Positions 917 through 20,443 of a DNA stretch of 20,443 bases are shown in pieces. This stretch comes from a virus. The stretch lies in the IMG/VR virus record IMGVR_UViG_3300044491_002239, positions 1-20,443 of that record. The stretch is one strand, 5' to 3'. A program made the position numbers and the translations under genes. The notes under the pieces are model-generated. The model was not told the DNA's origin and ran no database searches. It worked only from the letters and a program-made list of their open reading frames with translations. Each line of letters opens with the position of its first letter. Position 1 is the stretch's first letter.

Positions 917-1194
917 CCTCGGAAGAATTAAAAGTAAAAATTATAGAAGCAGGCAGAAAAGCAGTAGAAGAACTTATTAGAGTTGCTAAAGAGGATATTA
1001 TAAAGCCAGGGCCTGAAGATGAATTAGCTGCTGATAGATTAAAGAATGCTGCGGCAACTAAGAAGCTAGCTATATTTGATGCTTTCGATATTTTAAATAA
1101 AATAGACGCGGAGCAAGAGAGTATTAATCTAGCTAATAATTTTGACAGTAAAGTAGAAACCAAACAAGGATTTGCAGAAAGACGTTCAAGATAA
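913..1194 (+). CDS. Small pre-terminase protein, candidate terminase small subunit
   Basis: This ORF encodes 93 aa and overlaps the previous gene by four bases (ATGA), a sign of translational coupling. It appears almost entirely helical: an N-terminal amphipathic helix (SEELKVKIIEAGRKAVEEL), an acidic linker (PGPEDEL), then DRLKNAAATKKLAIFDAFDI and a second acidic helix. Position immediately before TerL, size and helical character suit a small terminase subunit. However, I see no clear helix-turn-helix, so that function rests on synteny. Its last 23 bases overlap the start of TerL in another frame. Confidence 0.7.
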   Translation: MTSEELKVKIIEAGRKAVEELIRVAKEDIIKPGPEDELAADRLKNAAATKKLAIFDAFDILNKIDAEQESINLANNFDSKVETKQGFAERRSR

Positions 1195-3418
1195 GATATA
1201 TCAGGTTATAGAAGACTATATTCCAAAGGGAGTTTTGAATAATAAAAACAAAGCTCGAACTTGGGAATATGGCTATAACGAAAAATATAACATAATTGTT
1301 ATATCAAAAAACGGAACTCTAGGTGAAGTTGTAAGTATATCAGGATTAAAAATAGGCTTGCCATTATCTCCTAAAAATATTATTACCAGAAATTCTAAAC
1401 GTTCAGAACAATATTGGGAACGTCACGAACTTCCAAAAGAACTTAGTAAAGTGCATTCTATTTTTCAATGGAATGAGATGCCGTCAAACTTTAAAGCTAA
1501 ATGGGTAGACTATATAGAAACTGAATTTGACAGGAGGGAAGACGGACACTGGTTTATGAATAATGGAACTCCTTCTTATATTACTGGAGCACATTATATG
1601 TATCTTCAGTGGTCTAGTATTGATATTGGTTATCCAGACTTTAGGGAAGCTAATAGAATATTTTTTATATTTTGGGAAGCTTGCAAAGCAGATAATAGAT
1701 GTTTTGGAATGGTTTATTTAAAAATAAGACGTTCTGGATTTTCTTTTATGGGTTCTTCTGAATGCGTAAACACTGGTACTCTTGCAAAAGATGCTAGGGT
1801 TGGAATACTTTCTAAAACTGGTTCGGATTCTAAAAAAATGTTTACAGACAAAGTTGTTCCTATTGCTAATAGGCTTCCATTCTTTTTCAAGCCTATTCAA
1901 GATGGTATGGATAAACCTAAAACGGAATTAGCGTTTAGGATTCCAGCTTCTAAGATTACAAAAAAGAATATGTATGATTCTTTAAGTGAAGAACTTTTAG
2001 GATTAGACACTACTATTGACTGGAAAAATACAGATGACAACTCTTATGATGGTGAAAAGCTATTACTGCTTGTACATGATGAAAGTGGTAAGTGGATTAA
2101 ACCAAATAACATACTAAACAACTGGAGGGTTACTAAAACTTGTTTGCGTTTGGGAAGCAAGATTATTGGAAAATGCATGATGGGTTCAACATCAAACGCT
2201 TTAGATAAAGGAGGTGATAATTTCAAAAAGCTATACGAGGATTCTAATATTCAAACAAGAAACGCCAATGGTCAGACTAAAAGCGGAATGTATTCACTTT
2301 TCATCCCTATGGAGTGGAATATGGAAGGGTTTATAGACATTCACGGCATGCCGGTATTAAGAGTTCCAAGTGAAAAAATAAAGGGAGTAGATAATCAATG
2401 GATAAAAAATGGCGCTATAGATTACTGGGAGGCTGAAGTAGACTCATTAAAGTCTGACGCTGATGCTTTAAATGAATTTTACAGACAGTTTCCTAGAACT
2501 GAATCACATGCATTTAGAGATGAAAGTAAACAATCTTTATTTAATTTAACTAAGATATACCAACAAATAGATTATAATGATTCTTTAATATCGGAACATC
2601 ATTTAACAAGAGGTAATTTTTACTGGGAAAGCGGCATAAAAGATAGGAAGGTTGCTTTTAGCCCAGATAAAAGAGGAAGGTTTTTGGTTAATTGGATACC
2701 ACCTAAACACTTGCAAAATAAAGTTATAGAAAGAAATGGATTAAAATATCCCGGCAATGAACATATAGGAGCTTTTGGTTGTGATAGTTATGATATATCA
2801 GGTACTGTAGGAGGTGGAGGTTCTAACGGAGCTTTGCACGGTCTTACTAAATTTAATATGGAGGACGCTCCTTCTAATCAGTTTTTTTTAGAATACGTAG
2901 CTAGACCTCAAACAGCAGAAATATTTTTTGAAGAAGTATTAATGGCTTGCGTTTTTTACGGAATGCCTATACTTATTGAAAATAACAAGCCTAGATTGCT
3001 TTATCATTTTAAGAATAGAGGCTATAGACCTTACTCTATAAATAGACCGGATAAACAATTATCAAAACTTTCTAAGACAGAAAGAGAACTTGGGGGCATC
3101 CCAAATAGTTCTGAAGATGTTAAGCAGTCTCATGCTGCCGCTATTGAGTCTTATATTGAAAAGTACGTTGGATTAGATATGGATGGGGCATTTAGAGAAT
3201 CAGACGACATGGGTTCCATGCTGTTTACTAGGACGTTAGAAGATTGGGCTAGATTTGACATAACTAATAGAACTAAGTTTGATGCTAGTATTAGCTCGGG
3301 TTTAGCAATTATGGCAACACAGAAACATATGTACTTGACAGAGAAAAAACAATCAAAAATAAACCTTAACTTTGCGAGGTACGCAAACAAAGGAAATTTA
3401 AGTGAATTAATTAGATAG
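1172..3418 (+). CDS. terL: Large terminase subunit (TerL), DNA-packaging ATPase and nuclease
   Basis: TerL powers genome packaging into the prohead and cuts the concatemer. The 748-aa length fits crAss-like and related TerL proteins. The ATPase half shows a deviant Walker A at K184-IRRSG-F190 (viral terminases often have R-rich P-loops rather than GKT) and a Walker B at LLLVHDE with D303 and E304. The RNase H-like nuclease half shows D538 in GCDSYD, E603 in ILIENN, and D649 with H654 in DVKQSH. The frame opens after a stop at 1154-1156. The first in-frame ATG codes for a Met about 100 residues in, past well-folded sequence, so I take the TTG at 1172 as the start, 23 bases inside the previous gene. 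The portal gene begins on the base after its stop. Confidence 0.93.
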   Translation: MQKDVQDKIYQVIEDYIPKGVLNNKNKARTWEYGYNEKYNIIVISKNGTLGEVVSISGLKIGLPLSPKNIITRNSKRSEQYWERHELPKELSKVHSIFQWNEMPSNFKAKWVDYIETEFDRREDGHWFMNNGTPSYITGAHYMYLQWSSIDIGYPDFREANRIFFIFWEACKADNRCFGMVYLKIRRSGFSFMGSSECVNTGTLAKDARVGILSKTGSDSKKMFTDKVVPIANRLPFFFKPIQDGMDKPKTELAFRIPASKITKKNMYDSLSEELLGLDTTIDWKNTDDNSYDGEKLLLLVHDESGKWIKPNNILNNWRVTKTCLRLGSKIIGKCMMGSTSNALDKGGDNFKKLYEDSNIQTRNANGQTKSGMYSLFIPMEWNMEGFIDIHGMPVLRVPSEKIKGVDNQWIKNGAIDYWEAEVDSLKSDADALNEFYRQFPRTESHAFRDESKQSLFNLTKIYQQIDYNDSLISEHHLTRGNFYWESGIKDRKVAFSPDKRGRFLVNWIPPKHLQNKVIERNGLKYPGNEHIGAFGCDSYDISGTVGGGGSNGALHGLTKFNMEDAPSNQFFLEYVARPQTAEIFFEEVLMACVFYGMPILIENNKPRLLYHFKNRGYRPYSINRPDKQLSKLSKTERELGGIPNSSEDVKQSHAAAIESYIEKYVGLDMDGAFRESDDMGSMLFTRTLEDWARFDITNRTKFDASISSGLAIMATQKHMYLTEKKQSKINLNFARYANKGNLSELIR

Positions 3419-5854
3419 ATGAGAGACGTTAAAATAGATATTTCATCTGCGGGATTTCCAAGTCAATTTGTTTCAGATGCTCAAAAAGCAACTGATGAAT
3501 TTGGCTTACAAATTGGACAGGCTATTCAATACGAGTGGTTTAAAAAAGACGGGAATCAATGCAGGTATTATAATCAATGGAGAGACTTTCATAGACTACG
3601 ACTTTACGCTAGAGGTGAGCAGTCTATAGCGAAGTATAAAAATGAGTTAGCGATTGATGGTGACTTGTCTTACCTTAATCTCGATTGGACCCCAGTTCCT
3701 ATTCTACCAAAGTTTGTGGACATTGTGGTAAACGGTATGCAAGACCGTGAGTTCAAAGTTAAGGCTTATGCTCAGGATGCATTATCTCAATCTAAAAGAA
3801 GTAAGTACCAAGACATGATAGAGGGTCAGATGGCCGCTAAAGATATTTTGGAAAACCTTCAAAAACAAACAGGTGTTGACCCTTTTATTATGAATCCTGA
3901 TGAACTTCCGGCTTCTGATGAAGAGCTTTCATTGTACATGAACCTCAACTACAAGCCAGCTATTGAGATAGCTGAAGAGGAGGCTATTGACACTATGTTT
4001 TCAGAAAACCATTATGACGATATACGTAAACGGTTAGATTATGATTTAACTGTTATTGGTATGTCTGTAGCCAAGCATGAATTTTTACCAGGCTCTGGAG
4101 TTGAAGTATCTTATGTTGACCCAGCTAATGTGGTTTACAGCTACACTGAAGACCCTCACTTTAAAGATTGTTTTTATTGGGGTGAAATTAAAACTTTACC
4201 AATAACTGAGTTATCAAAAATAGACCCTACCATTACTAAGGATGATTTAGAGGAAATATCTAAATACAGTCAGAGTTGGTTTGATTATTATAATGTAGCT
4301 CAATTTTATGAAAACGATATTTTTTATCGCGACACTTGTACTTTAATGTATTTTAATTATAAGACCACTAAGAAAATGGTTTATAAGAAAAGAATACTAG
4401 AAGGTGGTGGTTCTAAAATAATAGAAAAAGATGATTCATTTAACCCTCCGGCAGAAATGATGGAAGAGGGAAGGTTTGAAAAAATAGAAAAAACTATTGA
4501 TGTATGGTATAACGGAGTTATGGTTATGGGTACTAATATTATTCTTAAGTGGGAGCTTGCGGAAAATATGGTAAGACCTAAATCATCATCTCAACACGCT
4601 ATACCAAATTACGTAGCTGTAGCCCCTAGAATGTATAAGGGTGTTATTGAGTCTTTAGTTAGAAGAATGGTTCCTTTTGCTGATTTAATTCAAATAACGC
4701 ATTTAAAGCTTCAACAAGTTATTGCAAGAACAGTCCCCGATGGTGTATATATTGATGCGGATGGACTTAATGAAGTTGATTTAGGAACTGGCGCTTCTTA
4801 CGACCCCTCAGATGCTTTGAAATTATATTTTCAAACCGGTAGTGTTGTAGGTAGGAGTTATACTCAAGATGGAGAATACAATCAAGGAAGGGTTCCTATA
4901 CAGCAGCTTACAAGCAATTCAGGGGCTTCTAAGACACAAATGCTTATAGCTAACTATAATCACTACCTAGATATGATTCGCTCTGTAACAGGCTTAAATG
5001 AAGCCAGGGACGGTTCTACCCCATCTCCAGATGCTTTAGTGGGTGTTCAAAAATTAGCTGCATTAAATTCAAATACTGCTACTCGCCATATATTAGACGG
5101 AAGTCTTTACATATATCGTACGTTAGCAGAAGCTTTAACCTATAGGATAGCAGATATTTTGCAGTATTCTGATTTTAAAGAAGACTTTGTAAATAAAATA
5201 GGTAAGTACAATGTTAGTATACTGGGAGAAATAAGTGATTTATACATTTATGATTTTGGGGTATTTATAGAGCTTTCTCCAGACGAAGAGCAAAAAGCAA
5301 TGCTTGAGCAAAATATTCAAATGGCTTTATCTAAAGCAGACATTAATCTTGAAGATGCTATTGATATTAGAGAAATTAGAAACTTGAAATTAGCAAACCA
5401 ATTATTAAAAGTAAAAAGGTTGGCTAAACAAGATAGGGATGAAAAAATGGAAATGCAAAAGCAGGCCATGGTTTCACAGCAACAACTTAAGTCTCAAGAA
5501 ATGGCTGGACAAATGTCTCTTCAAAAAATAAACATGGAGACTGAGTCTAAGATAAAAGTAAAACAAGCTGAGATTGCTTTTGAAATAGAAAAAAATAAAA
5601 CAGAAGCAATGCTTAAGGCTCAACTTATGGAGCAAGAGTTTAATTACAACTTGCAGCTTCGTGGTATAGATGAAAACGCCCTATCTCAAAGGGAAGACCA
5701 AAGAGAGAAAGCAAAAAGCAGTAGAATTAGCCAACAGAATACTGAGCAGTCTAAATTAATTACACAACGTAAAAATAATTTACCACCTCAAAATTTTGAG
5801 TCTAATGAAGATAGCTTAGATGGTTTCGACTTAGCTGAGTTTGAACCTAGATAG
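3419..5854 (+). CDS. Portal protein (head-tail vertex)
   Basis: The portal forms the dodecameric ring through which DNA enters and to which the tail attaches. At 811 aa it is in the size range of crAss-like portals. Supporting features are its place directly after TerL and the residue 410-580 region (RRMVPFADLIQITHLKLQ, later SVTGLNEARDG, then LVGVQKLAALNSN), the helical stem/wing pattern seen in this portal family. From about residue 640 to 750 the chain is a long Gln/Glu/Lys/Met-rich coiled coil, which probably forms the barrel lining the capsid interior. The last 45 residues are acidic and Ser/Asn-rich and look disordered. No frameshift or internal stop is present. The assignment rests on synteny and remembered family features. 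Confidence 0.88.
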   Translation: MRDVKIDISSAGFPSQFVSDAQKATDEFGLQIGQAIQYEWFKKDGNQCRYYNQWRDFHRLRLYARGEQSIAKYKNELAIDGDLSYLNLDWTPVPILPKFVDIVVNGMQDREFKVKAYAQDALSQSKRSKYQDMIEGQMAAKDILENLQKQTGVDPFIMNPDELPASDEELSLYMNLNYKPAIEIAEEEAIDTMFSENHYDDIRKRLDYDLTVIGMSVAKHEFLPGSGVEVSYVDPANVVYSYTEDPHFKDCFYWGEIKTLPITELSKIDPTITKDDLEEISKYSQSWFDYYNVAQFYENDIFYRDTCTLMYFNYKTTKKMVYKKRILEGGGSKIIEKDDSFNPPAEMMEEGRFEKIEKTIDVWYNGVMVMGTNIILKWELAENMVRPKSSSQHAIPNYVAVAPRMYKGVIESLVRRMVPFADLIQITHLKLQQVIARTVPDGVYIDADGLNEVDLGTGASYDPSDALKLYFQTGSVVGRSYTQDGEYNQGRVPIQQLTSNSGASKTQMLIANYNHYLDMIRSVTGLNEARDGSTPSPDALVGVQKLAALNSNTATRHILDGSLYIYRTLAEALTYRIADILQYSDFKEDFVNKIGKYNVSILGEISDLYIYDFGVFIELSPDEEQKAMLEQNIQMALSKADINLEDAIDIREIRNLKLANQLLKVKRLAKQDRDEKMEMQKQAMVSQQQLKSQEMAGQMSLQKINMETESKIKVKQAEIAFEIEKNKTEAMLKAQLMEQEFNYNLQLRGIDENALSQREDQREKAKSSRISQQNTEQSKLITQRKNNLPPQNFESNEDSLDGFDLAEFEPR

Positions 5855-7036: not shown

Positions 7037-8458
7037 ATGGCAGGAGCTGTTCAAGCAACCCCAGGGTTTGCACTACAGCCAAGCGCAGAACAAGTGCCCT
7101 TGGCTTCAAATTACATTACAAATTTCGATTTCTTAAATCAGTACTTACCTGATACTTATGAAAAAGAATTTGAAAGATACGGTAATCGTACCGTAGCATC
7201 GTTCTTACGTATGGTAGGAGCTGAAATGCCTTCTAATTCTGACCTTATTAAATGGGCGGAACAAGGAAGATTACACACTAAGTACACTAATTGTGCATCT
7301 AACGGAGCTGCTGGAGCAGATACCGCTACTATTACAGTTAATGATACTTTAATTCCAGGTACTGGCTCAATTGCTATTAGAGTAGGACAAACTATTGTTG
7401 TTTCTGATAATGCTGGAGCTGGGCTAAACAAAGGTATTGTTACTGCTGTAAATACTGCGGCTGGTACTTTTGATGTTGCTTACTACGAGGCTGCTGGTCA
7501 AATAGGAGGAGCAGGTCTTACTTATACTGTATTTATTTACGGTTCTGAGTTTAAAAAAGGAACTAACGGAATGGAAGGTTCTTTAGAAGCTGATGACGTA
7601 TTCTTTGAAAACTCTCCAATTATCATTAAAGACAAATACGCTGTTAGCGGGTCTGATATGGCACAAATTGGATGGGTAGAAGTAACTACTGAAAATGGAG
7701 CTTCTGGGTACTTATGGTATTTAAAATCTGAGCATGAAACTAGATTGCGTTTTGACGACTATCTTGAAACTGCAATGATTGAGGCTGTACCAGCTGAAGC
7801 TGCTTCTGGAGCAATTGCTGCTGCTGGAGATGTAGGAAACAAAGGTTCTGAAGGTATCTTCTACGTAGTAGAAAACAGAGGAAACGTATGGGGCGGAGGA
7901 AATCCTGCTGCACTTGCTGACTTTGATGCAATCATTTCTCGTTTAGATAAGCAAGGTTCTATTGAAGAAAATGTTATTTTCGTAGATAGAGAATTTGGAT
8001 TTGACATCGATGATATGTTAGCTTCTCAGAACTCTTACGGAGCTGGTGGTACGTCTTATGGTTTATTTGACAATGACAAAGACATGGCATTAAACCTTGG
8101 ATTTACAGGATTCAGAAGAGGGTATGATTTCTACAAGTCTGATTGGAAATACTTAAATGACCCAACAATGAGAGGTGGTTTGCCTACTGGAGCTAATTCA
8201 GGGCGTGTAAACGGATTATTAGTACCTGCTGGTTCTACTACCGTATACGACCAGATTTTAGGTAAAAACGCTAAGAGACCTTTCTTACATGTTAGATATA
8301 GAGCTTCTGAAACAGAAGACAGACGTTACAAAACTTGGATTACAGGTTCTGCTGGCGGTGCACAAACTTCAAGCTTAGATGCTATGGAAGTTCACTTCTT
8401 GTCAGAAAGAGCTGTATGTACATTAGGTGCAAACAACTTCTTCTTATTCCAAGAGTAG
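7037..8458 (+). CDS. Major capsid protein (HK97-fold type)
   Basis: This 473-aa protein builds the icosahedral shell. It follows the scaffold-like gene and is closed by a strong terminator, as expected for a highly expressed capsid gene. The N-terminal region (NYITNFDFLNQYLPDTYEKE, then RTVASFLRMVGAE) and later features (FVDREFGFDIDD, GLFDNDKDMALNLGF, the C-terminal FLSERAVCTLGANNFFLFQE) match what I know of major capsid proteins in crAss-like and marine Bacteroidota phages. Residues about 88-168 are a Gly/Ala/Thr/Val-rich stretch of predicted beta strands, probably an insertion (I-type) domain on the basic fold. The leader TTTAAAATTAAAAATT is an A/T-rich Bacteroidota-style initiation region. 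Codons look more even (GTA, TCT, GGA, few rare ones), consistent with high expression. Confidence 0.9.
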   Translation: MAGAVQATPGFALQPSAEQVPLASNYITNFDFLNQYLPDTYEKEFERYGNRTVASFLRMVGAEMPSNSDLIKWAEQGRLHTKYTNCASNGAAGADTATITVNDTLIPGTGSIAIRVGQTIVVSDNAGAGLNKGIVTAVNTAAGTFDVAYYEAAGQIGGAGLTYTVFIYGSEFKKGTNGMEGSLEADDVFFENSPIIIKDKYAVSGSDMAQIGWVEVTTENGASGYLWYLKSEHETRLRFDDYLETAMIEAVPAEAASGAIAAAGDVGNKGSEGIFYVVENRGNVWGGGNPAALADFDAIISRLDKQGSIEENVIFVDREFGFDIDDMLASQNSYGAGGTSYGLFDNDKDMALNLGFTGFRRGYDFYKSDWKYLNDPTMRGGLPTGANSGRVNGLLVPAGSTTVYDQILGKNAKRPFLHVRYRASETEDRRYKTWITGSAGGAQTSSLDAMEVHFLSERAVCTLGANNFFLFQE

Positions 8459-10993: not shown

Positions 10994-11932
10994 ATGGCAA
11001 ATATTAAAAGAAATTTTATTGCCGGTCGTATGAACAAAAGCCTTGATGAAAGGCTTTTACCAAATGGTGAATATGTAGATGCGTTAAATGTTAGGTTAGG
11101 CTCTACAGAAGATTCTGAAATAGGCTCTGTTGAAAACTCAAAGGGTAATATCCCTTTAACTTCTATACAATTTATAGACGGAACTACATTAACCGCTAAT
11201 GCTAAATGTATAGGTGCTTTTCAAGATGGAGCTAACAATACTGTTTATTGGTTTATTCACGATTCTTCATTTGTACAAGGGGATACTGGTAAATTAGATT
11301 TAATAGTATCTTACAACGCTACTACGTCCACAACAACATATCACGTTATTAGTATTGATGATGGAGGTGGCGTAAACACTACATTAAATTTTAATCCATC
11401 ATATTTAATAACTGGAGTAAACTTAATTGATAATTCATTATTATTTTTTACAGATAATTATAATCCTCCAAGATTTTTAAATATAAATAAAAACTATCCT
11501 AATCCTATTTTAGTAACACCTACGCCCGCACCTGTGCCGGTTCCTGCAACACCAGTGCCGGTTCCTATACCAACACCTGTACCGGTTCCTATACCAACTC
11601 CAGTGCCAGTTCCCGTACCTACTCCAGTTGGTTGTAGTTGTATTACGGTAGATGTAGAAAATACTCAATTAACAAGTGGTGGATTAGACTTGTATTATAT
11701 TCTAAACCAATGCGGTTCAGGAGCAACTGATATTAATTTAACCATAACACTTGGAACTGAATCTGGAGGTTCAACATATTTTGGTTTCTGCAACACGGGA
11801 AGTCAAAGTAATATATTTAAATACGGACCTAGTGGTTCACCATTTGTAGGATTGCCTGGAATGAACGTTAATCCAAACGCAACAAGCTGTTCGGTAAACG
11901 GAGATTGTCTCCCTGTATTACCTACACCATAA
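10994..11932 (+). CDS. Tail hub/stabilisation protein, N-terminal part, ending in a proline array and Cys-rich module
   Basis: This ORF encodes 312 aa. Residues 1-172 (IKRNFIAGRMNKSLDERLLP, then GEYVDALNVRLGSTED, and finally FFTDNYNPPRFLNINKNYPN) look like the start of the large tail protein common in crAss-like and marine Bacteroidota phages. In that family, as I remember it, the chain continues straight into a segment resembling FSEESLLVIKKPP. Here that segment sits at the start of the next ORF. Instead, residues 176-211 form a (V/I/T/A)-Pro array and about 100 residues follow with six cysteines (GCSC, NQC, GFC, TSC, GDC), ending PVLPTP. So this looks like the first piece of a split gene carrying an added surface module. 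The split is inferred and the two ORFs are seen directly. Confidence 0.8.
   Translation: MANIKRNFIAGRMNKSLDERLLPNGEYVDALNVRLGSTEDSEIGSVENSKGNIPLTSIQFIDGTTLTANAKCIGAFQDGANNTVYWFIHDSSFVQGDTGKLDLIVSYNATTSTTTYHVISIDDGGGVNTTLNFNPSYLITGVNLIDNSLLFFTDNYNPPRFLNINKNYPNPILVTPTPAPVPVPATPVPVPIPTPVPVPIPTPVPVPVPTPVGCSCITVDVENTQLTSGGLDLYYILNQCGSGATDINLTITLGTESGGSTYFGFCNTGSQSNIFKYGPSGSPFVGLPGMNVNPNATSCSVNGDCLPVLPTP
11519..11626 (+). repeat. X-Pro dipeptide array in the hub N-terminal ORF
   Basis: Thirty-six codons (residues 176-211) encode near-perfect alternation of Pro with Val, Ile, Thr or Ala, such as PVPVPIPTPVPVP. Codons for Pro and Val vary (CCT, CCA, CCG, CCC; GTG, GTT, GTA), so the protein pattern is conserved better than the DNA. 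Alternating Pro sequences form stiff polyproline-II rods. Confidence 0.95.
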
Positions 11933-11951: not shown

Positions 11952-14900
11952 ATGGCTACATATTTAGACCAATTTTCTGAAGAATCTTTACTGGTTATAA
12001 AAAAACCTCCTATAAGCGCGCCTGTAGTTCAATCAATAAAAACAGCAGGAGAGGATGATTTTTTAGAAGAAAGATTTATTTGTTTTGCTTATAGATATAG
12101 GTACGCTGATGGCGAGTATTCCGCCACTTCACAATTTAGCGAGCCTTCATTTATTCCAGAACCATTTGACTTTAGCTTTGATAGTTTTTTAAATGAGGGA
12201 ATGGTTAACTCAACTAACGCCGCTATTATTACTTTTAATAGTGGAGGCCCATTGGTTGTTGGTATAGATTTATTATTTAAAGAATCAAATAATTTTACAA
12301 TTAAAGTAATTGAGAAATTAAATAAGTCTAACCTAGGCTATGCAGATAATCAAAATTATACTTATACATTTAATAATAGTAAAATATTTACTTTATTACC
12401 TGAGTCTGAAATATTAAGACTTTACGACAATGTTCCATTAACAGCCAAATCACAAACTGTAATGGGTAATAGATTGGTGTATGGAAATTATACCGAAGGA
12501 TATGATTTAAAAGATAGCAACAATAATCCTGTTAAATTTGAATATGATGCTAATTTAGTAAGCGAAAGTATAGGTCAAGAAAACATTGATACGTCTACTG
12601 ATTCTGGTCAATATTCAATTAATTCATCAGAGACTATTCCTGATTCTGTATTTTACGTAGATTTAGATGGTCTTGATTTAACTCAAGGCGCTTCTTTTAC
12701 TATTGATTTTAAAATAGAACATAATTCTTTTAGTGGAGACACTCCATTTCCAGCTGAAACCACATCAAGTATAGATTTTGCTTTTACTTATGTTTTACCT
12801 AGTACATATAATTCTGTTTATGAATTATCTATAAGCCCAGAATTTATACAAAGAATAGGAGGCTCTGCAATAGAGCCTGTTGCTACGGCTTGTGATGGTA
12901 CTACTCTTACAGACCAAATAAATTGTGCTTTACCACAAAATTTAGATTCGTTAATAAAAAACACAAGTGGTATAACTGGTGTCGGTCAATCTATATCAAT
13001 AATCTCTACTCCTTCAAGTAATCAAATAGGTTTTCAGATTGTTGCAATGAATTATGTTGACGATATTGTTACTCCTACTCAAAATGTTTATGAGTATTAT
13101 TCTATAATATTCTCTGAAGCTGTATACCAAAAGATAGCAAATACTTCTAGTCTTCATAGCAATAGAGGGTATGAAATAGGAATAATATATATGGATGAGT
13201 TTAATCGCTCCTCTACAGCTCTTGTAAGCCCTAATAATACGGTTCAAATACCATGCGCTAACTCAGCTGATAAAAACACAATACGGGTATCTATACCAAC
13301 CTCTCAGATAGCTCCTTCATGGGCTTCAAAGTATAAATTTGTAATTAAGCCAGATGAGGATAGTTATGAAACAATTTATAGCAATATATTCTTTGAAGAC
13401 CCGGCTAGTAATGCTGCTTATTTTTTATTGGAAGGAGAAAATGCTGCAAAAATACAAGATGGTGATAGGCTTATTGTAAAATCAGACATAAGCGGTCCTA
13501 CACAAAATTGTGTGTATACTACTGTTTTAGAAAAAGAAGTAAAAGTAGAAGGGTTTTTAACTATTCCTACTGGAGAAGATGATTCGGAAGGTCAGCCTAT
13601 AAATATATATGTTCCTTCTGGACCGTATATGAAATTAAATCCTAGTAATTTTTCTATTGTAACAGACACAAGCACTGGAGGTCCTTTTGTTGTTCCTGGG
13701 CCAAGGCAAGATACCGCTGATAGAAATGGAGATAATCCATTTGTAGCATACCCAGTTAATATAACAAATCCTTCAGGCACTGGAGCTACTAGTTATGTTG
13801 ATTATACTATTCCAGAAGGAAGTAGAATAAACATAGATATAACTCAAAAAAGAACAGGTAAGGGTAGTTGCCCTTCACGTTCTAATGTTTTTAGAGCTAA
13901 TTTTGTATCCACTCAAGATTATGTTGATTTTAAATCTTGGTGGGATGGAGATAACATTGGGGATATTCTTATTAATGATAGTATTATTTCTCCTGAATCA
14001 TACACTAATGAGTATGTTTCTACAATGGTTTCTGGCGCTGTAGACCCTACTATTTCTAATATATCTACAAGTGACACTATAAACTATTATCAATTTTACA
14101 CAAATACAGCTACTGGACAAAAGTTCCTTATGGTTACAGGTCCAGATGCTTGCGCAAGCGCTAGATATAGTGCTGACAGAAAAGCCACTGTAAGCGTGAA
14201 TATAGAAGTAATAAGGTATTCTAGCACAATTGTTTTTGAAACAATTCCAAGTGATGCATTGCCTGATGTTTGGTATGAAAATAATTTATCTTTTAATATA
14301 GGCCCTAATGGAGAGCATTATGGTAATGTCCAAAATCAAAACTTATCTTTATCTATACCTGGTATTGTCAGCACTGGATTTTTTAATTGTTTTGCTTTTG
14401 GAAATGGAGTAGAAAGCTATAAAATTAGAGATTCTATTTCAGCCAAATCATTTAATTTAGGAAATAGAGTCACTACAACTTCAGCTGTAGATTACAAAAG
14501 AGCTGATAGATTTGCAGACCTTACTTATAGTGGTGTATTTAATGACGAGACCAATGTAAATAAACTTAATGAATTTAACGTTGGTTTATTAAACTTTAAA
14601 CCTCTTGAAGAATCTTTTGGTTCTATTCAAATGTTATTTTCAAGACAAACAGATATACTTACTTTACAAGAGGATAAAATATCTTATGTATTAGCAGGAA
14701 AAAATTTACTTTCAGATGCGGCTGGAGAGAGTGTTCTTACTTCAGTTCCAGAAGTGCTTGGCTTACAAATTGCTCGTATAGAGAATTACGGTATTAGTTT
14801 AAACCCAGAAAGCTTTGTTGCTTGGGGATATGACAAATATTTTACAGATTCAAAACGAGGAGCTTTAATTCAATTACAGGGAACTTCTTTTAAGGATGAA

Positions 14901-16247
14901 AACTTAAATATAATTTCTGAAGCAGGAATGAGGTCTTGGTTTAGAGATTTATTCTTAGATTTTCCAGACACTCAAAAACTTGGAGCTTTTGACCCTTACA
15001 TGAATGAGTATGTTTTGTCTTCAAACAATTACTCACTGCCTATAGTTGAAACATGTATTGCTTGCGGTATAGATAAAAATTTATCTGTTTCATTAGGAAA
15101 CAGTGTTTCTTATTGTGTTGATTTATCACAGCTTGTTGGCGATGTAACAATAGATTACGTAATACCATTTGAAGGTACTGACAATGTTATTACTGAATTA
15201 ATTTCTGCTGATACAATTACTGAAGTAGGTTTTGATATTGTTTCTGAAGCTCCGTTTGCGGGAAGAAGATACACAATAACGGCTGTATACAATGGAATAA
15301 CTTACACTACTGGAGAGGTATTAGTTAGCGGAAGTTTTACGTTTCCTAAAAATATAGTTGGTATTACTGAGGCTGTTATTACGGTATCTACTGATTCTGT
15401 AGATATAGATACAGTTAAGGTAACTGTAAATTGTCCTTTAGCGGCAGAGTTGACTCTTTATAATATAGCTATAACAAGTAACAATAAAGGCGGTCAATTT
15501 ATACATAATGAATATAGGTGGCAAGATGGCGCATTTGCTTCTCCTCTACATTCTAATTTAGTAGAATTTTCTACAGGAACAAACCAACCTTTAGTGTCTC
15601 AATACTCTAGCGTATCTGGACCTCAAGGCGCTGGTATTATACCTGCTGATGCAGCTGTAGTAACTTTATTTAGCAATAAATTAAATACTGATGATTTTGT
15701 ATTTAATACTACATACAATAAATTTAAATATTTAAGAAGCAATACATTATATCAAAATAACAGTATTGATATTCAGGCTTTATTAGCAGCTTCTGCAGAT
15801 GCCACTCCAATAATAACAACAGGAGCTCCAGATGTTTATTCTGCTAATTTTACAATGCCTAGTACTGGAAATAAATTATATTTGATATGGGACTACAGAG
15901 AGTCAACTGAATTATCTCTTTGTTATTCTACTTTAAATATAACTGATGCTTGTTGTAGTTGCGTTATTCCTCCAGTGCCAGTGCCTGTACCGGTGCCTGT
16001 CCCGGTAGCTCCTACTAATTATAGGATTGAAGATTGTAATGGGGCTGGTTCTTATAATGTAGCAAAAGTAGGTTGTGTTTTTGAGATAAGTGATGTTGTT
16101 CAGTATATAAGAAACACAGACCCTAATACTATTTATTGTGGAACTGTGACAAGCACAACTTTTCCATCTGGTTCAGAGGATGCCACACTGTTTAGTTGTA
16201 ATGCTTATAGTTGTGATGACTTTATACATTGCAATGTAAACATATAA
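11952..16247 (+). CDS. Giant tail hub/stabilisation protein, main part, with C-terminal Cys module
   Basis: This 1431-aa protein starts with an ATG in a different frame from the preceding ORF, 19 bases after its stop, with an A-rich leader. Residues 1-200 (SEESLLVIKKPPISAP, DFLEERFICFAYRYRYADG, GGPLVVGIDLLFKES, RLYDNVPLTAKSQTVMGNRL) look like the continuation of the tail protein begun upstream. The rest is very beta-rich, with repeated Ig-like stretches, suiting a multi-domain tail hub or baseplate protein. Late features are a CxxC (C1035, C1038), a segment LYLIWDYRESTELSLCYSTL, and CCSC at 1334-1337. After that come a short PVP array (1340-1354) and a module YRIEDCNGAGSYNV...IYCGTVTS that resembles one in the next gene. 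No enzyme motif or signal peptide is visible. It is probably an exposed virion component in contact with the fibre. Confidence 0.82.
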   Translation: MATYLDQFSEESLLVIKKPPISAPVVQSIKTAGEDDFLEERFICFAYRYRYADGEYSATSQFSEPSFIPEPFDFSFDSFLNEGMVNSTNAAIITFNSGGPLVVGIDLLFKESNNFTIKVIEKLNKSNLGYADNQNYTYTFNNSKIFTLLPESEILRLYDNVPLTAKSQTVMGNRLVYGNYTEGYDLKDSNNNPVKFEYDANLVSESIGQENIDTSTDSGQYSINSSETIPDSVFYVDLDGLDLTQGASFTIDFKIEHNSFSGDTPFPAETTSSIDFAFTYVLPSTYNSVYELSISPEFIQRIGGSAIEPVATACDGTTLTDQINCALPQNLDSLIKNTSGITGVGQSISIISTPSSNQIGFQIVAMNYVDDIVTPTQNVYEYYSIIFSEAVYQKIANTSSLHSNRGYEIGIIYMDEFNRSSTALVSPNNTVQIPCANSADKNTIRVSIPTSQIAPSWASKYKFVIKPDEDSYETIYSNIFFEDPASNAAYFLLEGENAAKIQDGDRLIVKSDISGPTQNCVYTTVLEKEVKVEGFLTIPTGEDDSEGQPINIYVPSGPYMKLNPSNFSIVTDTSTGGPFVVPGPRQDTADRNGDNPFVAYPVNITNPSGTGATSYVDYTIPEGSRINIDITQKRTGKGSCPSRSNVFRANFVSTQDYVDFKSWWDGDNIGDILINDSIISPESYTNEYVSTMVSGAVDPTISNISTSDTINYYQFYTNTATGQKFLMVTGPDACASARYSADRKATVSVNIEVIRYSSTIVFETIPSDALPDVWYENNLSFNIGPNGEHYGNVQNQNLSLSIPGIVSTGFFNCFAFGNGVESYKIRDSISAKSFNLGNRVTTTSAVDYKRADRFADLTYSGVFNDETNVNKLNEFNVGLLNFKPLEESFGSIQMLFSRQTDILTLQEDKISYVLAGKNLLSDAAGESVLTSVPEVLGLQIARIENYGISLNPESFVAWGYDKYFTDSKRGALIQLQGTSFKDENLNIISEAGMRSWFRDLFLDFPDTQKLGAFDPYMNEYVLSSNNYSLPIVETCIACGIDKNLSVSLGNSVSYCVDLSQLVGDVTIDYVIPFEGTDNVITELISADTITEVGFDIVSEAPFAGRRYTITAVYNGITYTTGEVLVSGSFTFPKNIVGITEAVITVSTDSVDIDTVKVTVNCPLAAELTLYNIAITSNNKGGQFIHNEYRWQDGAFASPLHSNLVEFSTGTNQPLVSQYSSVSGPQGAGIIPADAAVVTLFSNKLNTDDFVFNTTYNKFKYLRSNTLYQNNSIDIQALLAASADATPIITTGAPDVYSANFTMPSTGNKLYLIWDYRESTELSLCYSTLNITDACCSCVIPPVPVPVPVPVPVAPTNYRIEDCNGAGSYNVAKVGCVFEISDVVQYIRNTDPNTIYCGTVTSTTFPSGSEDATLFSCNAYSCDDFIHCNVNI
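15969..16013 (+). repeat. Short (Val-Pro)n linker before a Cys module
   Basis: Fifteen codons (residues 1340-1354) alternate Pro and Val directly after the CCSC motif and before the YRIEDC module. It is the shortest of the five X-Pro arrays and looks like a rigid spacer joining a hub end to a surface module. Confidence 0.92.
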
Positions 16248-16267: not shown

Positions 16268-17905
16268 ATGGGATTAGTTACAATATATATTGACACTGCA
16301 AACTTTACTGATGCAACAGCTGTTTTTAGTGATGCAAGTTTAAGTATTTGTGCTCCTGATGGATTTTATTCAGACGGAGTAGTAGTAAGAGAGCAAGTTA
16401 GCTGTGTTTTATTGCCAGCTCAAACATGCCCATCTTGCCCTACACCTGTGCCAGTGCCAGTGCCTGTACCAAGTGCACCTACTCCTGTTCCTGTACCAAG
16501 CGTACCTACTCCTACTCCTGTTCCTGTACCAAGTGCACCTACTCCTGTTCCTGTACCAAGTGCACCTACTCCTGTTCCTGTACCAAGTGCACCTACTCCT
16601 ACTCCTATACCAGTGCCAAGCGTACCTACTCCTACTCCTATACCAGTGCCAAGCGTACCTACTCCTACTCCTATACCAGTGCCAAGCGTACCTACTCCTA
16701 CTCCTATACCAGTTCCAAGTGTACCTACACCAGTTCCAGTGCCTATACCAGTTCCAAGTGTACCTACACCAGTTCCAGTGCCGGTGCCTATTCCGCCTAC
16801 CTATAATTATTATTTTGCCGAGCCTTGCGAAGGAGGTTTTGTGGTTTACTTTAGAAGTGTTAGTTTATTTAGTGCTGGAGAATCTGTTAAAATATCAGGT
16901 TATGGAGATACTTGTTTCGATGTAGGAGCAATAGGAGCTCCTTCAAATACCAATGATTGGACAGAAGCTTTCCCAGATTGCTCAGCTTGTCTACCAACTC
17001 CTCCTCCTGACCCGCCGGCGCCTGTACCAGTGCCTATTCCAGTTCCTGTACCAGTTCCGGTGCCTGTTCCAGTACCTGTACCAATACCGGTTCCTGTACC
17101 AATACCGGTTCCTGTACCAGTTCCGGTGCCTGTCCCAGTACCTGTACCAGTTCCAACACCAATAGTAGTATGTGATAATAATATAGTGGCTGGAAATAAT
17201 AATCCTTTATCTGATAGAGGTTATTGGAGAGGTGATTTTAACATTGGAACAATAGATACTAATGCTTATACTATAGACCCATCTTGGACAATTATAAGAT
17301 TTACTTACAGTAACTCAAATGACTCTAATACATTATGGTTAGAGAAGAGTGGAACAGACCAACCTTGGACATCAGTATTTGATTCGTTAACAGTTACATC
17401 TCCTCAAGGCAGTGTTGTATTAACACCAGCGAACTCTAATAGTGGCTTATCAGGAGTAACTAATGTAGGGGGGAATACGGTAGTATTCTATACTTGGGAT
17501 ACACTAGATGTAGCAATTAATAATGGAGATGATGTATGCTTAGAATGGTCTGGCACCACACCTACGCCGTCTCCTACACCGAGTCCTACACCGAGTCCGA
17601 CTCCTAGTCCAACGCCTCCAGTTTTAGTAACATTAGGTGGTTCAAGTAGAAGTGAAGACAATGGTTCAGCAACTGACGACCAATGTTTTCAATTTTTAAC
17701 TGACAATATTTGGTATGAAGGCGATTTTGTAACAGATGCCACTAAAGTTGGCGGCAGATGGTATTCAGACTCTGGAGGCAGCAATCCTTTTAGTGGGGCG
17801 TTTTTATGGTATGGAGTTGGTAGACCAGAAACAACTTTTGCGGCAGAATACCAAGTTCAAATAAGCGACGCTGGTATTGTTGTAGCGCAAAGAAACGCTT
17901 GCTAA
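16268..17905 (+). CDS. Modular tail fibre/adhesin with three proline-rich rods
   Basis: This 545-aa protein follows the tail hub after a 20-base A-rich gap. Domains in order: residues 1-57, a compact N-terminal module ([17 protein letters not shown] type, ending CPSC) that may bind the hub; 58-177, an X-Pro array of 120 residues; 178-242, a module starting [14 protein letters not shown] with several cysteines; 243-298, a second array, mostly (V/I)P; 299-431, a beta-rich domain ([29 protein letters not shown]); 432-451, a SPTP array; 452-545, a C-terminal domain ([19 protein letters not shown] to the final Cys) that is a candidate receptor-binding tip. Alternating Pro gives polyproline-II rods, so this looks like beads on stiff stalks. 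A prolyl-hydroxylase-like gene follows immediately, suggesting the rods may be modified. The domain identities are not recognised. Confidence 0.83.
16439..16798 (+). repeat. Main X-Pro array (120 codons)
   Basis: Residues 58-177 of the fibre alternate Pro with Val, Thr, Ile, Ser or Ala in units such as PTPVPVPSA and [11 protein letters not shown]. The DNA shows nested tandem units of 27 and 33 bp as well as freer codon variation. If fully extended as a polyproline-II helix (about 0.31 nm per residue) it would span roughly 37 nm. Confidence 0.96.
16592..16723 (+). repeat. Four tandem 33-bp units in the main array
   Basis: The unit CCTACTCCTACTCCTATACC plus 13 more bases starts at 16592, 16625, 16658 and 16691. 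Copies 1-3 are identical and copy 4 differs at two third-codon positions. Each unit encodes 11 residues ([11 protein letters not shown]). Related 27-bp units precede it from 16478. The identity of copies points to recent unequal recombination or slippage that keeps frame. Confidence 0.93.
16994..17161 (+). repeat. Second fibre array, mostly (Val/Ile-Pro)n
   Basis: Residues 243-298 begin [10 protein letters not shown] and then alternate Pro with Val or Ile for about 46 residues. Codons are mixed, with a loosely repeating GTTCCTGTACCAATACCG (two adjacent copies from about 17070). It joins the YYFAEPC module to the next beta-rich domain. Confidence 0.94.
17561..17620 (+). repeat. Third fibre array, SPTP type
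   Basis: Twenty codons (residues 432-451) encode [11 protein letters not shown]-type sequence ending TPP. This array has Ser/Thr rather than Val between prolines, so it differs in chemistry from the other two rods and could also be O-glycosylated on Ser or Thr. Confidence 0.93.
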
Positions 17906-17932
17906 AATTAAATTAAATTAAATTAAATTAAA
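17906..17932 (+). promoter_or_regulatory. (AATTA)5 leader of the hydroxylase gene
   Basis: The whole 27-base gap between fibre and hydroxylase is five tandem AATTA units plus AA. It contains no Shine-Dalgarno motif and resembles the A/T-rich, unstructured initiation regions typical of Bacteroidota. Copy-number change here could alter expression of the downstream modification genes, which is speculation. Confidence 0.6.
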
Positions 17933-19102
17933 ATGAATCAAATTAAAAATTTTCTAAGCAAAGAAGAGTGCCTAGAGTTAATGAGTATGATAGATGCTAA
18001 TCATCAACCCTCAGCAGTAGTTGAGGGTGGATACGAAGTAAGTACTGTATCAAAGACAAGAACATCAAGTACTTGTAATTTAGACCCAAAAAATGAAACG
18101 GTCATTGGTATTCATAAAAAGATAGCTAGTCGTTTAGGTATAGATTTATCTAAAGGAGAGCAGCTTCAGGGTCAGCTTTATGAAGAAGGACAGTATTTTA
18201 AACCTCATCAAGATTTTTTTAGCGGACCAGCTTATGACAAGCATTGCCTAAGCTCTGGCAATCGCACTGATACATTTATGATATACCTTAATGATGATTT
18301 TGATGGCGGCGGAACAAATTTTCCTAAATTAGAAAAAACTATTACACCTGAAAGTGGTAAAGCGGTTTATTGGAAAAATATGATTGATGGTGTATGTCAA
18401 GACAATTCTATGCACGAAGGTATGCCTATCTCTAAAGGAAAAAAATATATTATTACATCTTGGTGGAGGGAGAATAATTGGAATGGAGCTGAAGACGCTT
18501 ATCTTTATAGTAGTAAACCAAAAAAGTACACAAGTAAAGAACAAATACCAAAGCTAACTGAAAAAGGATTTAAAGTTGTTAAGTGTCCAAATGAAACTTG
18601 GTCTATAATAAAAGAAGCTTATGAAATTTTAAAAAGTAAAAAAACTGAAGAAATTTTTCCAGGCAAAGAAAATATAATTATAGGAGGCGGAAGCGATATA
18701 TATTCTTTTGAGCATTTAACTAGCATAAGGTCTTTAATACACAAACAATTGCAGCCTATTCACGAGGAGTTTTGCAATCAAAAAATAGAGCCCACTTTTA
18801 TTTACGGCATAAGGTCATATAAAAAAGGAGCTACTTTAATTAAACACGTAGACAGAGTAGAGACGCATCACATTAGTAGTATAATAATAGTAGATAAAGA
18901 TTTAAGCTGTGGATGTGGTTATAAGGAGTTTGGAGCTGATTGGCCTTTAGATATTCAATCGCATGATGGAGAGTGGCATAAAGTGTATGCCGAACCTGGA
19001 GATATGATATTATATGAAAGCGCTATCTGTGAGCACGGAAGAGAAGAACCATTTGAAGGTAAAAGTTTTGATAATTTTTATGTACATTATAAATTAATAT
19101 GA
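17933..19102 (+). CDS. Tandem-domain 2-oxoglutarate/Fe(II) dioxygenase, prolyl 4-hydroxylase type
   Basis: This 389-aa protein holds two different oxygenase domains. Domain 1 (residues 1-185) shows the iron ligands H92-Q-D94 in YFKPHQDFF and H161 in HEGMPISKGKKY, with K171 as 2-oxoglutarate anchor, and ends SWWRE, close to the KWIRE end of prolyl 4-hydroxylases. The segment FDGGGTNFP is also typical. Domain 2 (about 280-389) has H305-V-D307 in KHVDR and H368 in YESAICEHGREEPFEGKSF, a pattern I know from algal and giant-virus prolyl-hydroxylase-like proteins. These enzymes couple 2-oxoglutarate decarboxylation to hydroxylation, classically of peptidyl proline. Following a fibre with long Pro arrays, a likely substrate is those arrays, but this is inferred. 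The next gene overlaps by four bases (ATGA). Confidence 0.9.
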   Translation: MNQIKNFLSKEECLELMSMIDANHQPSAVVEGGYEVSTVSKTRTSSTCNLDPKNETVIGIHKKIASRLGIDLSKGEQLQGQLYEEGQYFKPHQDFFSGPAYDKHCLSSGNRTDTFMIYLNDDFDGGGTNFPKLEKTITPESGKAVYWKNMIDGVCQDNSMHEGMPISKGKKYIITSWWRENNWNGAEDAYLYSSKPKKYTSKEQIPKLTEKGFKVVKCPNETWSIIKEAYEILKSKKTEEIFPGKENIIIGGGSDIYSFEHLTSIRSLIHKQLQPIHEEFCNQKIEPTFIYGIRSYKKGATLIKHVDRVETHHISSIIIVDKDLSCGCGYKEFGADWPLDIQSHDGEWHKVYAEPGDMILYESAICEHGREEPFEGKSFDNFYVHYKLI

Positions 19103-19929
19103 TTTCAATCCCTTGCACAGTAGCTAATGCTTATTTTAAAAAGCAAATTTCTTTTTTTCAATTTCAACATTTAGAGGTTTACGGAGAGCAGGCTACAAAT
19201 AAAGCTATTATTCCTATAGTTAAGTATAATCATTTTAATGAGACTCCAGTAGAAGATGTTGATTGGGATATGAAGCTTCCTTATAGGATGGTTAATTCCG
19301 TATACGACTACATAGATAGCGATAAACAATGGCACATTCCTATTAATGTTTTTACAGCAGCAAAACAAATTATAGAAACATTAAATGATGACGAGGTTGT
19401 TGAAATTATAGACGCTGATTTAGTTCATTTAAAACCACATCCATTAATTTATGACCATATAGATTATGACGTTGTAATTGCTGATGCTATATATGAGAAT
19501 TGGCACATGCATATATCATCTCCAAATGGAGCTAATAGGATGGTTTTAAGCGAGTATCTCACTCATTCTGATGAAGGATATATTAATGGTGGTTTTAACG
19601 TAATAGGAAGGGTTAAAACGATTAAAAAAATAATAGATGACGTAATAAAGTATTCGTCATTAATAACAGAAAAAGAACAGGGCAATCAACACTCCTGGTG
19701 GTGTGCAATGCATGGTTTAAATATAGCTTGTCATAATCATAGAATAAAAATGATTGATGATAAAAATTGTTATTATCCAAATATAAATCAACTAGATGAA
19801 AAACATTACATAGCTCATTATAGTTGTGACCCAATATTTAACAAGCATAAAATTCCAAATATAGATACATCTATCTTTCCTGATAATTTATTTTATAATC
19901 AAGCTAAAAAATGGATTGCTCAGTTGTAA
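19099..19929 (+). CDS. Glycosyltransferase-like protein resembling hydroxyproline O-arabinosyltransferase/SGT families
   Basis: This 276-aa protein overlaps the hydroxylase by four bases, so it is probably translationally coupled. The region EIIDADLVHLKPHP has D105-A-D107 as a likely metal/nucleotide-sugar site. Later GNQHSWWCAMHGLNIACHN and, near the end, YIAHYSCD with H240 resemble the order seen in plant hydroxyproline O-arabinosyltransferase (GT95) and peptidyl-serine galactosyltransferase (GT96) proteins: an acidic 'EPDH' site, a long helix ending 'ASALHG', then 'HYTYGCDY'. This similarity is recalled by eye. There is no signal peptide or membrane segment, as expected for a cytoplasmic enzyme acting before virion assembly. 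Other GT-A glycosyltransferases remain possible. Confidence 0.72.
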   Translation: MISIPCTVANAYFKKQISFFQFQHLEVYGEQATNKAIIPIVKYNHFNETPVEDVDWDMKLPYRMVNSVYDYIDSDKQWHIPINVFTAAKQIIETLNDDEVVEIIDADLVHLKPHPLIYDHIDYDVVIADAIYENWHMHISSPNGANRMVLSEYLTHSDEGYINGGFNVIGRVKTIKKIIDDVIKYSSLITEKEQGNQHSWWCAMHGLNIACHNHRIKMIDDKNCYYPNINQLDEKHYIAHYSCDPIFNKHKIPNIDTSIFPDNLFYNQAKKWIAQL

Positions 19930-20443
19930 CTTGTGTAACAGGTAATTTTAATAAAGTTCACTATACAGACGTTGATAGCGCTTTTGTTTGCACCACAATA
20001 ATAGACGATTCATTTAAATCTCATGCAAATTCTAATGGATGGGAAATAAAGCAATTGCCTTTTAACCATACTTATGATTTAAAAGAAGGAACTAGACAAT
20101 CTAAATATGTTAAATTTTTAAAGTTTTTTGTTCCTGAAACAAAGTATGTTATATACGCAGACCACAAATATAAAGTATTAAAAGAACATCTTCCTTTATT
20201 AATTAATGTTTTGGGTGATAATTCTTTTTTGTCTTTTACAAATTCAAAAGATATATATAGAGAATTTTTTGATTCTTTAAGCTTTGATAGGTATAAAAAA
20301 GATTTAGACGAAATGATAAGAACATTAAAAGACCATGCTCATATTAATTCATCTGCTTTAGATTTATTTTATGGAGGTTTAATTATGTATAATACTCATC
20401 ATGAAAAATTTAATGTTTTAAGAAAAAAGATGGAAGATTATAC
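19911..20443 (+). CDS. DUF616/TOD1-like glycosyltransferase, N-terminal part (cut by window end)
   Basis: An ATG at 19911, 19 bases inside the preceding gene, opens a frame that runs to the window end without a stop (177 codons so far). It begins MDCSVVTCVTGNFNK. The central TRQSKYVKFLKFFVPETKYV followed by IYADHKYKV (D84-H-K) matches the DUF616 pattern I recall (an R, then K and a P-containing helix, then 'siwiDgk'), a family that includes plant TOD1 and MUCI70 glycosyltransferase-like proteins. Later it has a helical stretch (YKKDLDEMIRTLKD) and YGGLIMYNTHHE. It appears to be the third gene of the hydroxylase/glycosyltransferase run. The donor and acceptor cannot be told from this fragment. 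Confidence 0.75.
   Translation, partial: MDCSVVTCVTGNFNKVHYTDVDSAFVCTTIIDDSFKSHANSNGWEIKQLPFNHTYDLKEGTRQSKYVKFLKFFVPETKYVIYADHKYKVLKEHLPLLINVLGDNSFLSFTNSKDIYREFFDSLSFDRYKKDLDEMIRTLKDHAHINSSALDLFYGGLIMYNTHHEKFNVLRKKMEDY

What the first reader, a model, noticed from the sequence alone, without database searches (positions are those of the whole stretch)
16268..20443. Candidate phage-encoded proline hydroxylation and hydroxyproline glycosylation system for tail fibres
Seen in sequence: a fibre with 120-, 56- and 20-residue X-Pro arrays is followed immediately by a protein with two prolyl-4-hydroxylase-type domains, a glycosyltransferase-like protein and a DUF616-like glycosyltransferase, the last three overlapping. 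Established: in plants and green algae, (Ala/Ser/Thr/Val)-Pro repeats are hydroxylated by prolyl 4-hydroxylases, and the hydroxyproline is then O-glycosylated (arabinogalactan and extensin proteins, GT95 and related families). Inference: this phage has assembled the bacterial-virus counterpart, making stiff, sugar-coated stalks that could protect against proteases, change receptor binding or hide the virion. I know of no described phage system of this kind.
Basis: partly seen in the sequence, partly recalled or inferred. Interest (0 to 1): 0.93.

Follow-up and report, generated by a model that had tools for sequence, protein, structure and literature searches.

The report
Phage proline-stalk hydroxylation and glycosylation cassette
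A crAss-like phage, like dozens of its relatives and several unrelated phages, carries beside the gene for a proline-rich tail fibre the enzymes that in plants hydroxylate proline and then attach sugars to it, so these phages probably build stiff, sugar-coated stalks in a way not described before for bacterial viruses.

Summary
The window is a crAss-like phage fragment. Its post-muzzle fibre has three Pro arrays (127, 60, 24 residues), followed by a tandem 2OG oxygenase, an overlapping glycosyltransferase (GTh) and a third gene cut by the contig end. The first oxygenase domain is a genuine prolyl-4-hydroxylase: its best structural match is the algal P4H solved with (Ser-Pro)5, Z 24.8. GTh folds as GT-A. 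Pfam HPAT (hydroxyproline O-arabinosyltransferase) matches GTh relatives above its cut-off in 12 of 22 viral records and 0 of 14 control genomes; the window's own copy is below detection. In 45 of 46 dereplicated relatives of the hydroxylase, a Pro-array gene is among the two genes upstream, against 4 of 181 background genes. Cellular homologues and four other phage P4Hs have no such neighbour. Unrelated jumbo, siphovirus-type and other phages repeat the arrangement; one fuses GTh to two 2OG domains. The glycosyltransferase slot is swapped among at least four families. Limits: in the crAss-like tree the hydroxylase label needs only two changes; some distant relatives of both enzymes lack nearby Pro arrays; hydroxyproline, sugar and virion function are untested. 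The DUF616 label was not confirmed.

The parts
16268..17905 (+). Fibre with X-Pro stalks (545 aa), presumed substrate
   Evidence: Pro arrays and shuffle test; position directly after the muzzle and N-domain shared with relatives
16268..16441 (+). Fibre N-terminal domain (aa 1-58), conserved in crAss-like relatives with and without arrays
16424..16804 (+). Pro array 1 (aa 53-179, 57 Pro)
16988..17167 (+). Pro array 2 (aa 241-300, 30 Pro, nearly all Val-Pro/Ile-Pro, 2 Ser/Thr)
17555..17626 (+). Pro array 3 (aa 430-453, Ser-Pro/Thr-Pro)
17627..17902 (+). Fibre C-terminal domain (aa 454-545), 64-68% identical to the end of a tail protein in non-crAss phages L016/L017
17933..19102 (+). Tandem 2OG-Fe(II) oxygenase (389 aa)
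17933..18517 (+). N-terminal domain, prolyl 4-hydroxylase
   Evidence: PF13640; PDB P4H sequences E down to 9e-32; algal P4H-(Ser-Pro)5 Z 24.8
18524..19099 (+). C-terminal 2OG domain, HxD...HGR, reaction unassigned; stands alone before GTh in L018-L028
19099..19929 (+). GTh: GT-A glycosyltransferase related to the HPAT family
   Evidence: model pLDDT 93.5; GT-A matches; HPAT matches in relatives
19911..20443 (+). Third gene, GT-like by context, family unassigned, cut by the contig end
   Evidence: relatives next to GTh
11516..11626 (+). X-Pro stretch in the muzzle N-terminal gene (aa 175-211), possible second substrate
15975..16004 (+). X-Pro stretch near the muzzle C-terminus (aa 1342-1351), possible substrate

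Best explanation
The genes form a virion-modification cassette. The fibre after the muzzle (and probably the Pro stretches of the muzzle) has long X-Pro stalks that would form polyproline-II rods. The P4H domain hydroxylates prolines in these stalks. GTh, an HPAT-type glycosyltransferase, then attaches a sugar to the hydroxyproline, and further glycosyltransferases (here the cut third gene; in relatives GT60, O-FucT-like or GT32-like enzymes, sometimes with nucleotide-sugar enzymes) extend or replace it. The result would be stiff, glycosylated spikes. SHOWN: gene order, arrays, P4H fold (predicted model), GT-A fold (predicted model), HPAT relationship of the family, linkage to arrays in many phages. 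INFERRED: that the arrays are the substrate, that hydroxyproline is the glycosylated residue, which sugar, and what it does for the virion.
For: Linkage: 45/46 dereplicated P4H loci have a Pro-array gene within two genes upstream against 4/181 background genes (Fisher 1e-41, not corrected for phylogeny). Same order in crAss-like and in non-crAss phages, in jumbo-phage loci L029/L241 and in L257, where GTh is fused to two 2OG domains downstream of a Pro-rich fibre. P4H identity and the algal P4H-(Ser-Pro)5 match. HPAT matches above cut-off in 12/22 viral records, 0/14 controls. In the same gene slot: P4H 4/4 arrays, GT60 only 4/13, neither 0/17. The window's P4H is closest to that of non-crAss L016/L017 (77-78%), with which it also shares the fibre C-terminus, as if fibre end and P4H travelled together. 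X is Thr, Ser, Val, Ala or Gly in 95% of positions of strict arrays, the set found in plant glycomodules.
Against: No chemistry. The window's own GTh has no Pfam match. Within the crAss-like tree the P4H label needs only 2 changes, so those counts are few events. Distant relatives lack local arrays: cyanophage contigs L437-L452, podovirus-type lineage L238/L253/L255/L460-L464, L234, and GTh occurs without a detected P4H in L242-L252. Only 2 of 145 strict arrays are free of Ser/Thr, so Ser/Thr glycosylation is open. The search that gave the 45/46 kept the best 80 of 311 relatives.
Confidence: 0.65

Rival explanations
1. P4H hydroxylates the stalk, but the sugar goes on Ser/Thr (mucin-like) or elsewhere on the fibre; hydroxyproline only stiffens the polyproline helix.
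For: Thr and Ser make up 69% of X in strict arrays and only 2 of 145 arrays lack them. GT60-type genes sit in the same slot with Thr-Pro-rich fibres and no P4H in L084, L085, L088 and L093. From my knowledge, GT95 is related to GT96, a serine galactosyltransferase family; the review says so too (PMC8012813).
Against: HPAT, not another GT family, is the Pfam model that the GTh family matches. The window's second array has 30 Pro and 2 Ser/Thr in 60 residues.
Confidence: 0.18
2. The enzymes modify host targets (for example EF-Tu, known as a P4H target in bacteria, or cell-surface glycans); the neighbouring arrays are merely linkers.
For: Bacterial P4Hs solved with or modifying EF-Tu are among the structural matches. 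Cellular homologues have no Pro-array neighbours. Authors of S-SCSM1 read its 2OG oxygenases as host reprogramming (PMC9602691).
Against: The tight linkage to array genes in unrelated phages and the loss of arrays in P4H-less relatives are unexplained.
Confidence: 0.1
3. Pro arrays and enzymes are independent passengers of a hypervariable receptor-binding cassette that moves as one block; linkage is hitch-hiking.
For: The crAss-like distribution needs few events; fibre end and P4H appear to move together.
Against: Linkage recurs in unrelated phages with different fibre proteins, and GTh-2OG fusion ties the enzymes together. The GT changes between close relatives while array and P4H stay.
Confidence: 0.07

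Closest known systems
Hydroxyproline-rich glycoprotein pathway of plants and green algae (P4H, then HPAT of family GT95; extensins, arabinogalactan proteins)
   Same: X-Pro repeats with X = Ala/Ser/Thr/Val, a P4H closest in structure to the algal enzyme, and a glycosyltransferase family that matches the HPAT model.
   Different: Encoded by phages, presumably cytosolic and without a secretory pathway; tandem 2OG protein; GT swapped among families; plant HPATs act mainly on contiguous Hyp (PMC8012813), whereas these arrays are alternating. Activity untested.
Prolyl hydroxylase of Chlorella virus PBCV-1 (vCPH)
   Same: Viral P4H, among the best structural matches (5c5t, Z 21.7).
   Different: Virus of a eukaryotic alga; I know of no linked array gene and hydroxyproline-glycosyltransferase cassette there (own knowledge).
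Glycosylated virions of mycobacteriophages (Freeman et al. 2023, cited in PMC12619734)
   Same: Phage-encoded glycosyltransferases modify structural proteins.
   Different: Glycans reported at C-termini of capsid and tail-tube subunits; no proline hydroxylation.
2OG-Fe(II) oxygenases of marine phages (phrog_61; 'P4HA' auxiliary gene)
   Same: Same superfamily; P4HA is reported among the commonest Baltic Sea viral auxiliary genes, use 'cryptic' (PMC9301287).
   Different: No substrate was given there; four other phage P4H-type genes examined here have no Pro-array neighbour.

Membership tests
Prolyl 4-hydroxylase (2OG-Fe(II) oxygenase) | Sequence profile and double-stranded beta-helix fold of P4H | tested here: met
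   N-domain: PF13640 E 2e-16, PDB P4H sequences E 9e-32, 3gze Z 24.8 rmsd 2.2 over 181 aa
Prolyl 4-hydroxylase (2OG-Fe(II) oxygenase) | HxD...H iron site and 2OG-binding basic residue | tested here: met
   H92-x-D94, H161 and Lys in the N-domain; H305-x-D307, H368, R370 in the C-domain
Prolyl 4-hydroxylase (2OG-Fe(II) oxygenase) | C-terminal domain is itself a P4H | tested here: inconclusive
   Only a sub-threshold PF13661 match; iron site kept
Prolyl 4-hydroxylase (2OG-Fe(II) oxygenase) | Hydroxylates peptidyl proline | not testable with these tools
   needs biochemistry
HPAT / GT95 hydroxyproline O-arabinosyltransferase | Match to Pfam HPAT (PF23452) above its cut-off | tested here: inconclusive
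   Met by 12 of 22 viral records with family members, including L016 and L022; not met by the window's own protein
HPAT / GT95 hydroxyproline O-arabinosyltransferase | GT-A fold with DxD-type motif | tested here: met
   model pLDDT 93.5, glycogenin Z 15.3; D105-x-D107 invariant
HPAT / GT95 hydroxyproline O-arabinosyltransferase | Transfers arabinofuranose to hydroxyproline | not testable with these tools
   needs biochemistry; sugar unknown
Hydroxyproline-rich glycoprotein pathway (works like) | X-Pro substrate with P4H and Hyp glycosyltransferase acting on it | tested here: inconclusive
   Genes present and linked; action on the arrays not testable here
DUF616 glycosyltransferase (third gene) | Match to Pfam DUF616 | tested here: not met
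   No DUF616 match for the window ORF or five relatives at E up to 10
Crassvirales (crAss-like phage) | crAss muzzle protein with terminase, portal and capsid relatives in order | tested here: met
   PF25731 above cut-off; phrog_14478, 6681, 6547, 13704

The most novel reading that the evidence does not exclude
A widespread, modular hydroxyproline-glycoprotein system of tailed phages: a constant core of X-Pro stalk plus tandem hydroxylase, and an exchangeable glycan module (HPAT-like, GT60, O-FucT with carbamoyltransferase and nucleotide-sugar enzymes, GT32), spread among unrelated phages as a way to build and vary glycosylated spikes. It would be the first hydroxyproline-linked glycosylation in bacterial viruses.
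Probability: 0.5. Interest if true: 0.95.

Novelty: new variant of a known kind. Interest (0 to 1): 0.9.

Why it matters
Prolyl 4-hydroxylase is reported among the commonest auxiliary genes of Baltic Sea viruses, and how viruses use it was called cryptic (PMC9301287); phage 2OG oxygenases are otherwise read as altering host metabolism (PMC9602691). The linkage found here gives one clade of them a concrete, testable substrate, the proline stalks of virion fibres, and explains why glycosyltransferases follow. It would carry the logic of plant and algal hydroxyproline-rich glycoproteins into bacterial viruses. Because P4H needs O2, it also predicts that such stalks are confined to phages of oxic habitats. 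Swapped glycosyltransferases suggest a way to vary virion glycans.

Tried and rejected
A collection scan for (Pro-Val)n DNA returned mostly out-of-frame repeats: 18 of 120 loci had a plausible X-Pro ORF and none had the modelled enzymes. But one of these (L219) has a (PV)n protein followed by a weak O-FucT match and a nucleotide-sugar enzyme, and L145 has a muzzle array followed by a protein with a sub-threshold HPAT score, so the scan is uninformative rather than negative. A scan with the fibre N-domain alignment could not be run. GTh was sought in GTDB genomes and not found; that does not prove absence. Two-domain 2OG homologues were found in proteobacteria without Pro-array neighbours, so this enzyme architecture is not a phage invention. 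No PDB sequence is a convincing relative of GTh and no HPAT structure appeared among the fold matches shown. DUF616 membership was not upheld. I did not treat the crAss-like Fisher test as independent evidence after the tree showed only two changes. The out-of-sample scans with distant relatives gave no local arrays and are reported as a limit.
Full report
WHAT IS THERE. The window is a crAss-like phage fragment: terminase 1172-3418, portal 3419-5854, capsid 7037-8458 and a muzzle protein split into 10994-11932 and 11952-16247. Directly after the muzzle comes the 545-aa fibre with Pro arrays at aa 53-179, 241-300 and 430-453. The longest strict X-Pro run is 24 units; shuffling the protein gives at most 7. 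Pro codons vary at the third base and hardly at the first two. The muzzle itself carries two shorter X-Pro stretches. Three genes follow, the last three overlapping: the tandem 2OG protein, GTh, and a third gene cut by the contig end.

THE ENZYMES. The N-terminal 2OG domain is a prolyl-4-hydroxylase by Pfam, by profile search of PDB sequences (E 9e-32) and by structure: the best match of its model is the algal P4H solved with a (Ser-Pro)5 peptide (Z 24.8, rmsd 2.2 over 181 residues), followed by other P4Hs including the Chlorella-virus enzyme. The C-terminal domain keeps HxD...HGR, invariant across relatives, but its reaction is unassigned; in L018-L028 it stands alone directly before GTh. GTh is predicted with high confidence (pLDDT 93.5) as a GT-A fold. 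Pfam's HPAT model matches 11 of 24 GTh proteins and passes its curated cut-off in 12 of 22 viral records and 0 of 14 control genomes. The window's own GTh is below detection, so the relationship is by family: it is 58-60% identical to L016 and L022, which pass the cut-off. The third gene matches no known family convincingly.

LINKAGE. Searching viral contigs with GTh gave the same order, Pro-array gene, 2OG enzyme, GTh, in crAss-like phages and in phages without crAss markers, one of them with a tape-measure gene before the array protein. Searching with the C-terminal 2OG domain enlarged the set. After dereplication at 95% identity, 45 of 46 loci with upstream sequence have a Pro array in one of the two genes before the hydroxylase, against 4 of 181 other genes in the same loci; at 85% it is 32 of 33 against 3 of 142. 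The exception is L234, whose record, read for the most part, holds only a short IPNP-type repeat elsewhere. Jumbo-phage loci L029/L241 have a TPTP-rich fibre just before a GTh fusion and a P4H just after it. L257 fuses GTh to two 2OG domains downstream of a PPVVPVVPP-type fibre.

A NATURAL EXPERIMENT IN ONE GENE SLOT. The gene after the muzzle keeps the same N-terminal domain across crAss-like relatives. In a sample anchored on a neighbouring structural gene rather than on the enzymes, loci with P4H have arrays in 4/4, loci with only a GT60-type gene in 4/13, and loci with neither in 0/17. A tree of 67 muzzle sequences needs only two changes of the P4H label. The crAss-like counts are therefore few evolutionary events, and the independent weight comes from the separate phage lineages. 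On the same tree the P4H rows all have arrays (31/31), while the glycosyltransferase changes between close relatives, for example L279 (GTh) and L287 (GT60), or L315 (GTh) and L317 (GT60).

GLYCAN MODULES. Downstream of the hydroxylase are GTh (20 of 50), GT60 (12), GTh with the third-gene family (6), GTh with GT60 (1) and others (11). Examined examples of the others are GT32-like (L264, L270) and O-FucT-like genes (L280, L321), with carbamoyltransferase or nucleotide-sugar enzymes in some. The cultured cyanophage S-SCSM1 has a related 2OG / O-FucT / 2OG triad and a virion protein with a 55-unit X-Pro run.

CONTROLS AND LIMITS. Cellular homologues of the hydroxylase in proteobacteria have no Pro-array neighbours. 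Four other phage P4H-type genes have none. Distant relatives in cyanophage contigs have no array within 10 kb or in ten partial records. A lineage with GTh and 2OG genes in a terminase-portal-capsid block (L238, L253, L255) has none in the sequence available. The tight linkage therefore belongs to the P4H clade of this window plus the jumbo and fusion cases, not to every relative of either enzyme. X in the strict arrays is Thr 46%, Ser 23%, Val 14%, Ala 9%, Gly 3%, which fits plant glycomodules but leaves Ser/Thr glycosylation open.

LITERATURE. No paper found in the library describes hydroxyproline or its glycosylation in a phage virion. P4HA is noted as one of the commonest Baltic viral auxiliary genes with cryptic use (PMC9301287); the 24 2OG oxygenases of S-SCSM1 were read as host reprogramming (PMC9602691). 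The library holds open-licence papers only, so prior description elsewhere cannot be excluded.

VERDICT. Observation confirmed; interpretation supported as a genomic inference; chemistry open. The parts belong to known families, but the pathway placed on phage stalks, with exchangeable glycosyltransferases, is a new variant.

Noticed in passing
window 10994-11932 and 11952-16247: The crAss muzzle gene is split in two; an X-Pro stretch and a small Cys-containing domain end the first part. Other relatives have it whole (L002, L007, L012) or split (L003, L005, L079, L084).
   Followed up: partly
window 17905-17947: Pentanucleotide AAATT repeat (8.6 copies) just before the hydroxylase start codon; shorter in some relatives. 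Possibly length-variable expression.
   Followed up: partly
L084, L085, L088, L055-L079 (gene after the fibre): P4H-less crAss-like relatives carry a PF11397 (GlcNAc transferase, GT60-type) gene in the same slot; the family includes a hydroxyproline GlcNAc transferase of Skp1 (own knowledge).
   Followed up: partly
L258 10261-12675 (Synechococcus phage S-SCSM1) and L437-L452: Conserved cyanophage triad 2OG / O-FucT / 2OG, in S-SCSM1 near carbamoyltransferase and GDP-sugar genes; target unknown.
   Followed up: partly
L238 5292-7282, L253, L254, L255 8865-10849, L460-L464: Podovirus-type lineage with a two-domain 2OG protein in a terminase-portal-capsid block, with GTh directly after it in L238 and L253-L255, without Pro arrays.
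   Followed up: partly
L246, L248, L252: GTh relatives without P4H, each directly after related 340-380 aa proteins; these records may be viruses of eukaryotes.
   Followed up: no
L418-L431: Two-domain 2OG proteins of about 450-480 aa, or single C-type domains, in SAR86, Pseudomonas and other proteobacteria, away from Pro-rich genes; function unknown.
   Followed up: partly
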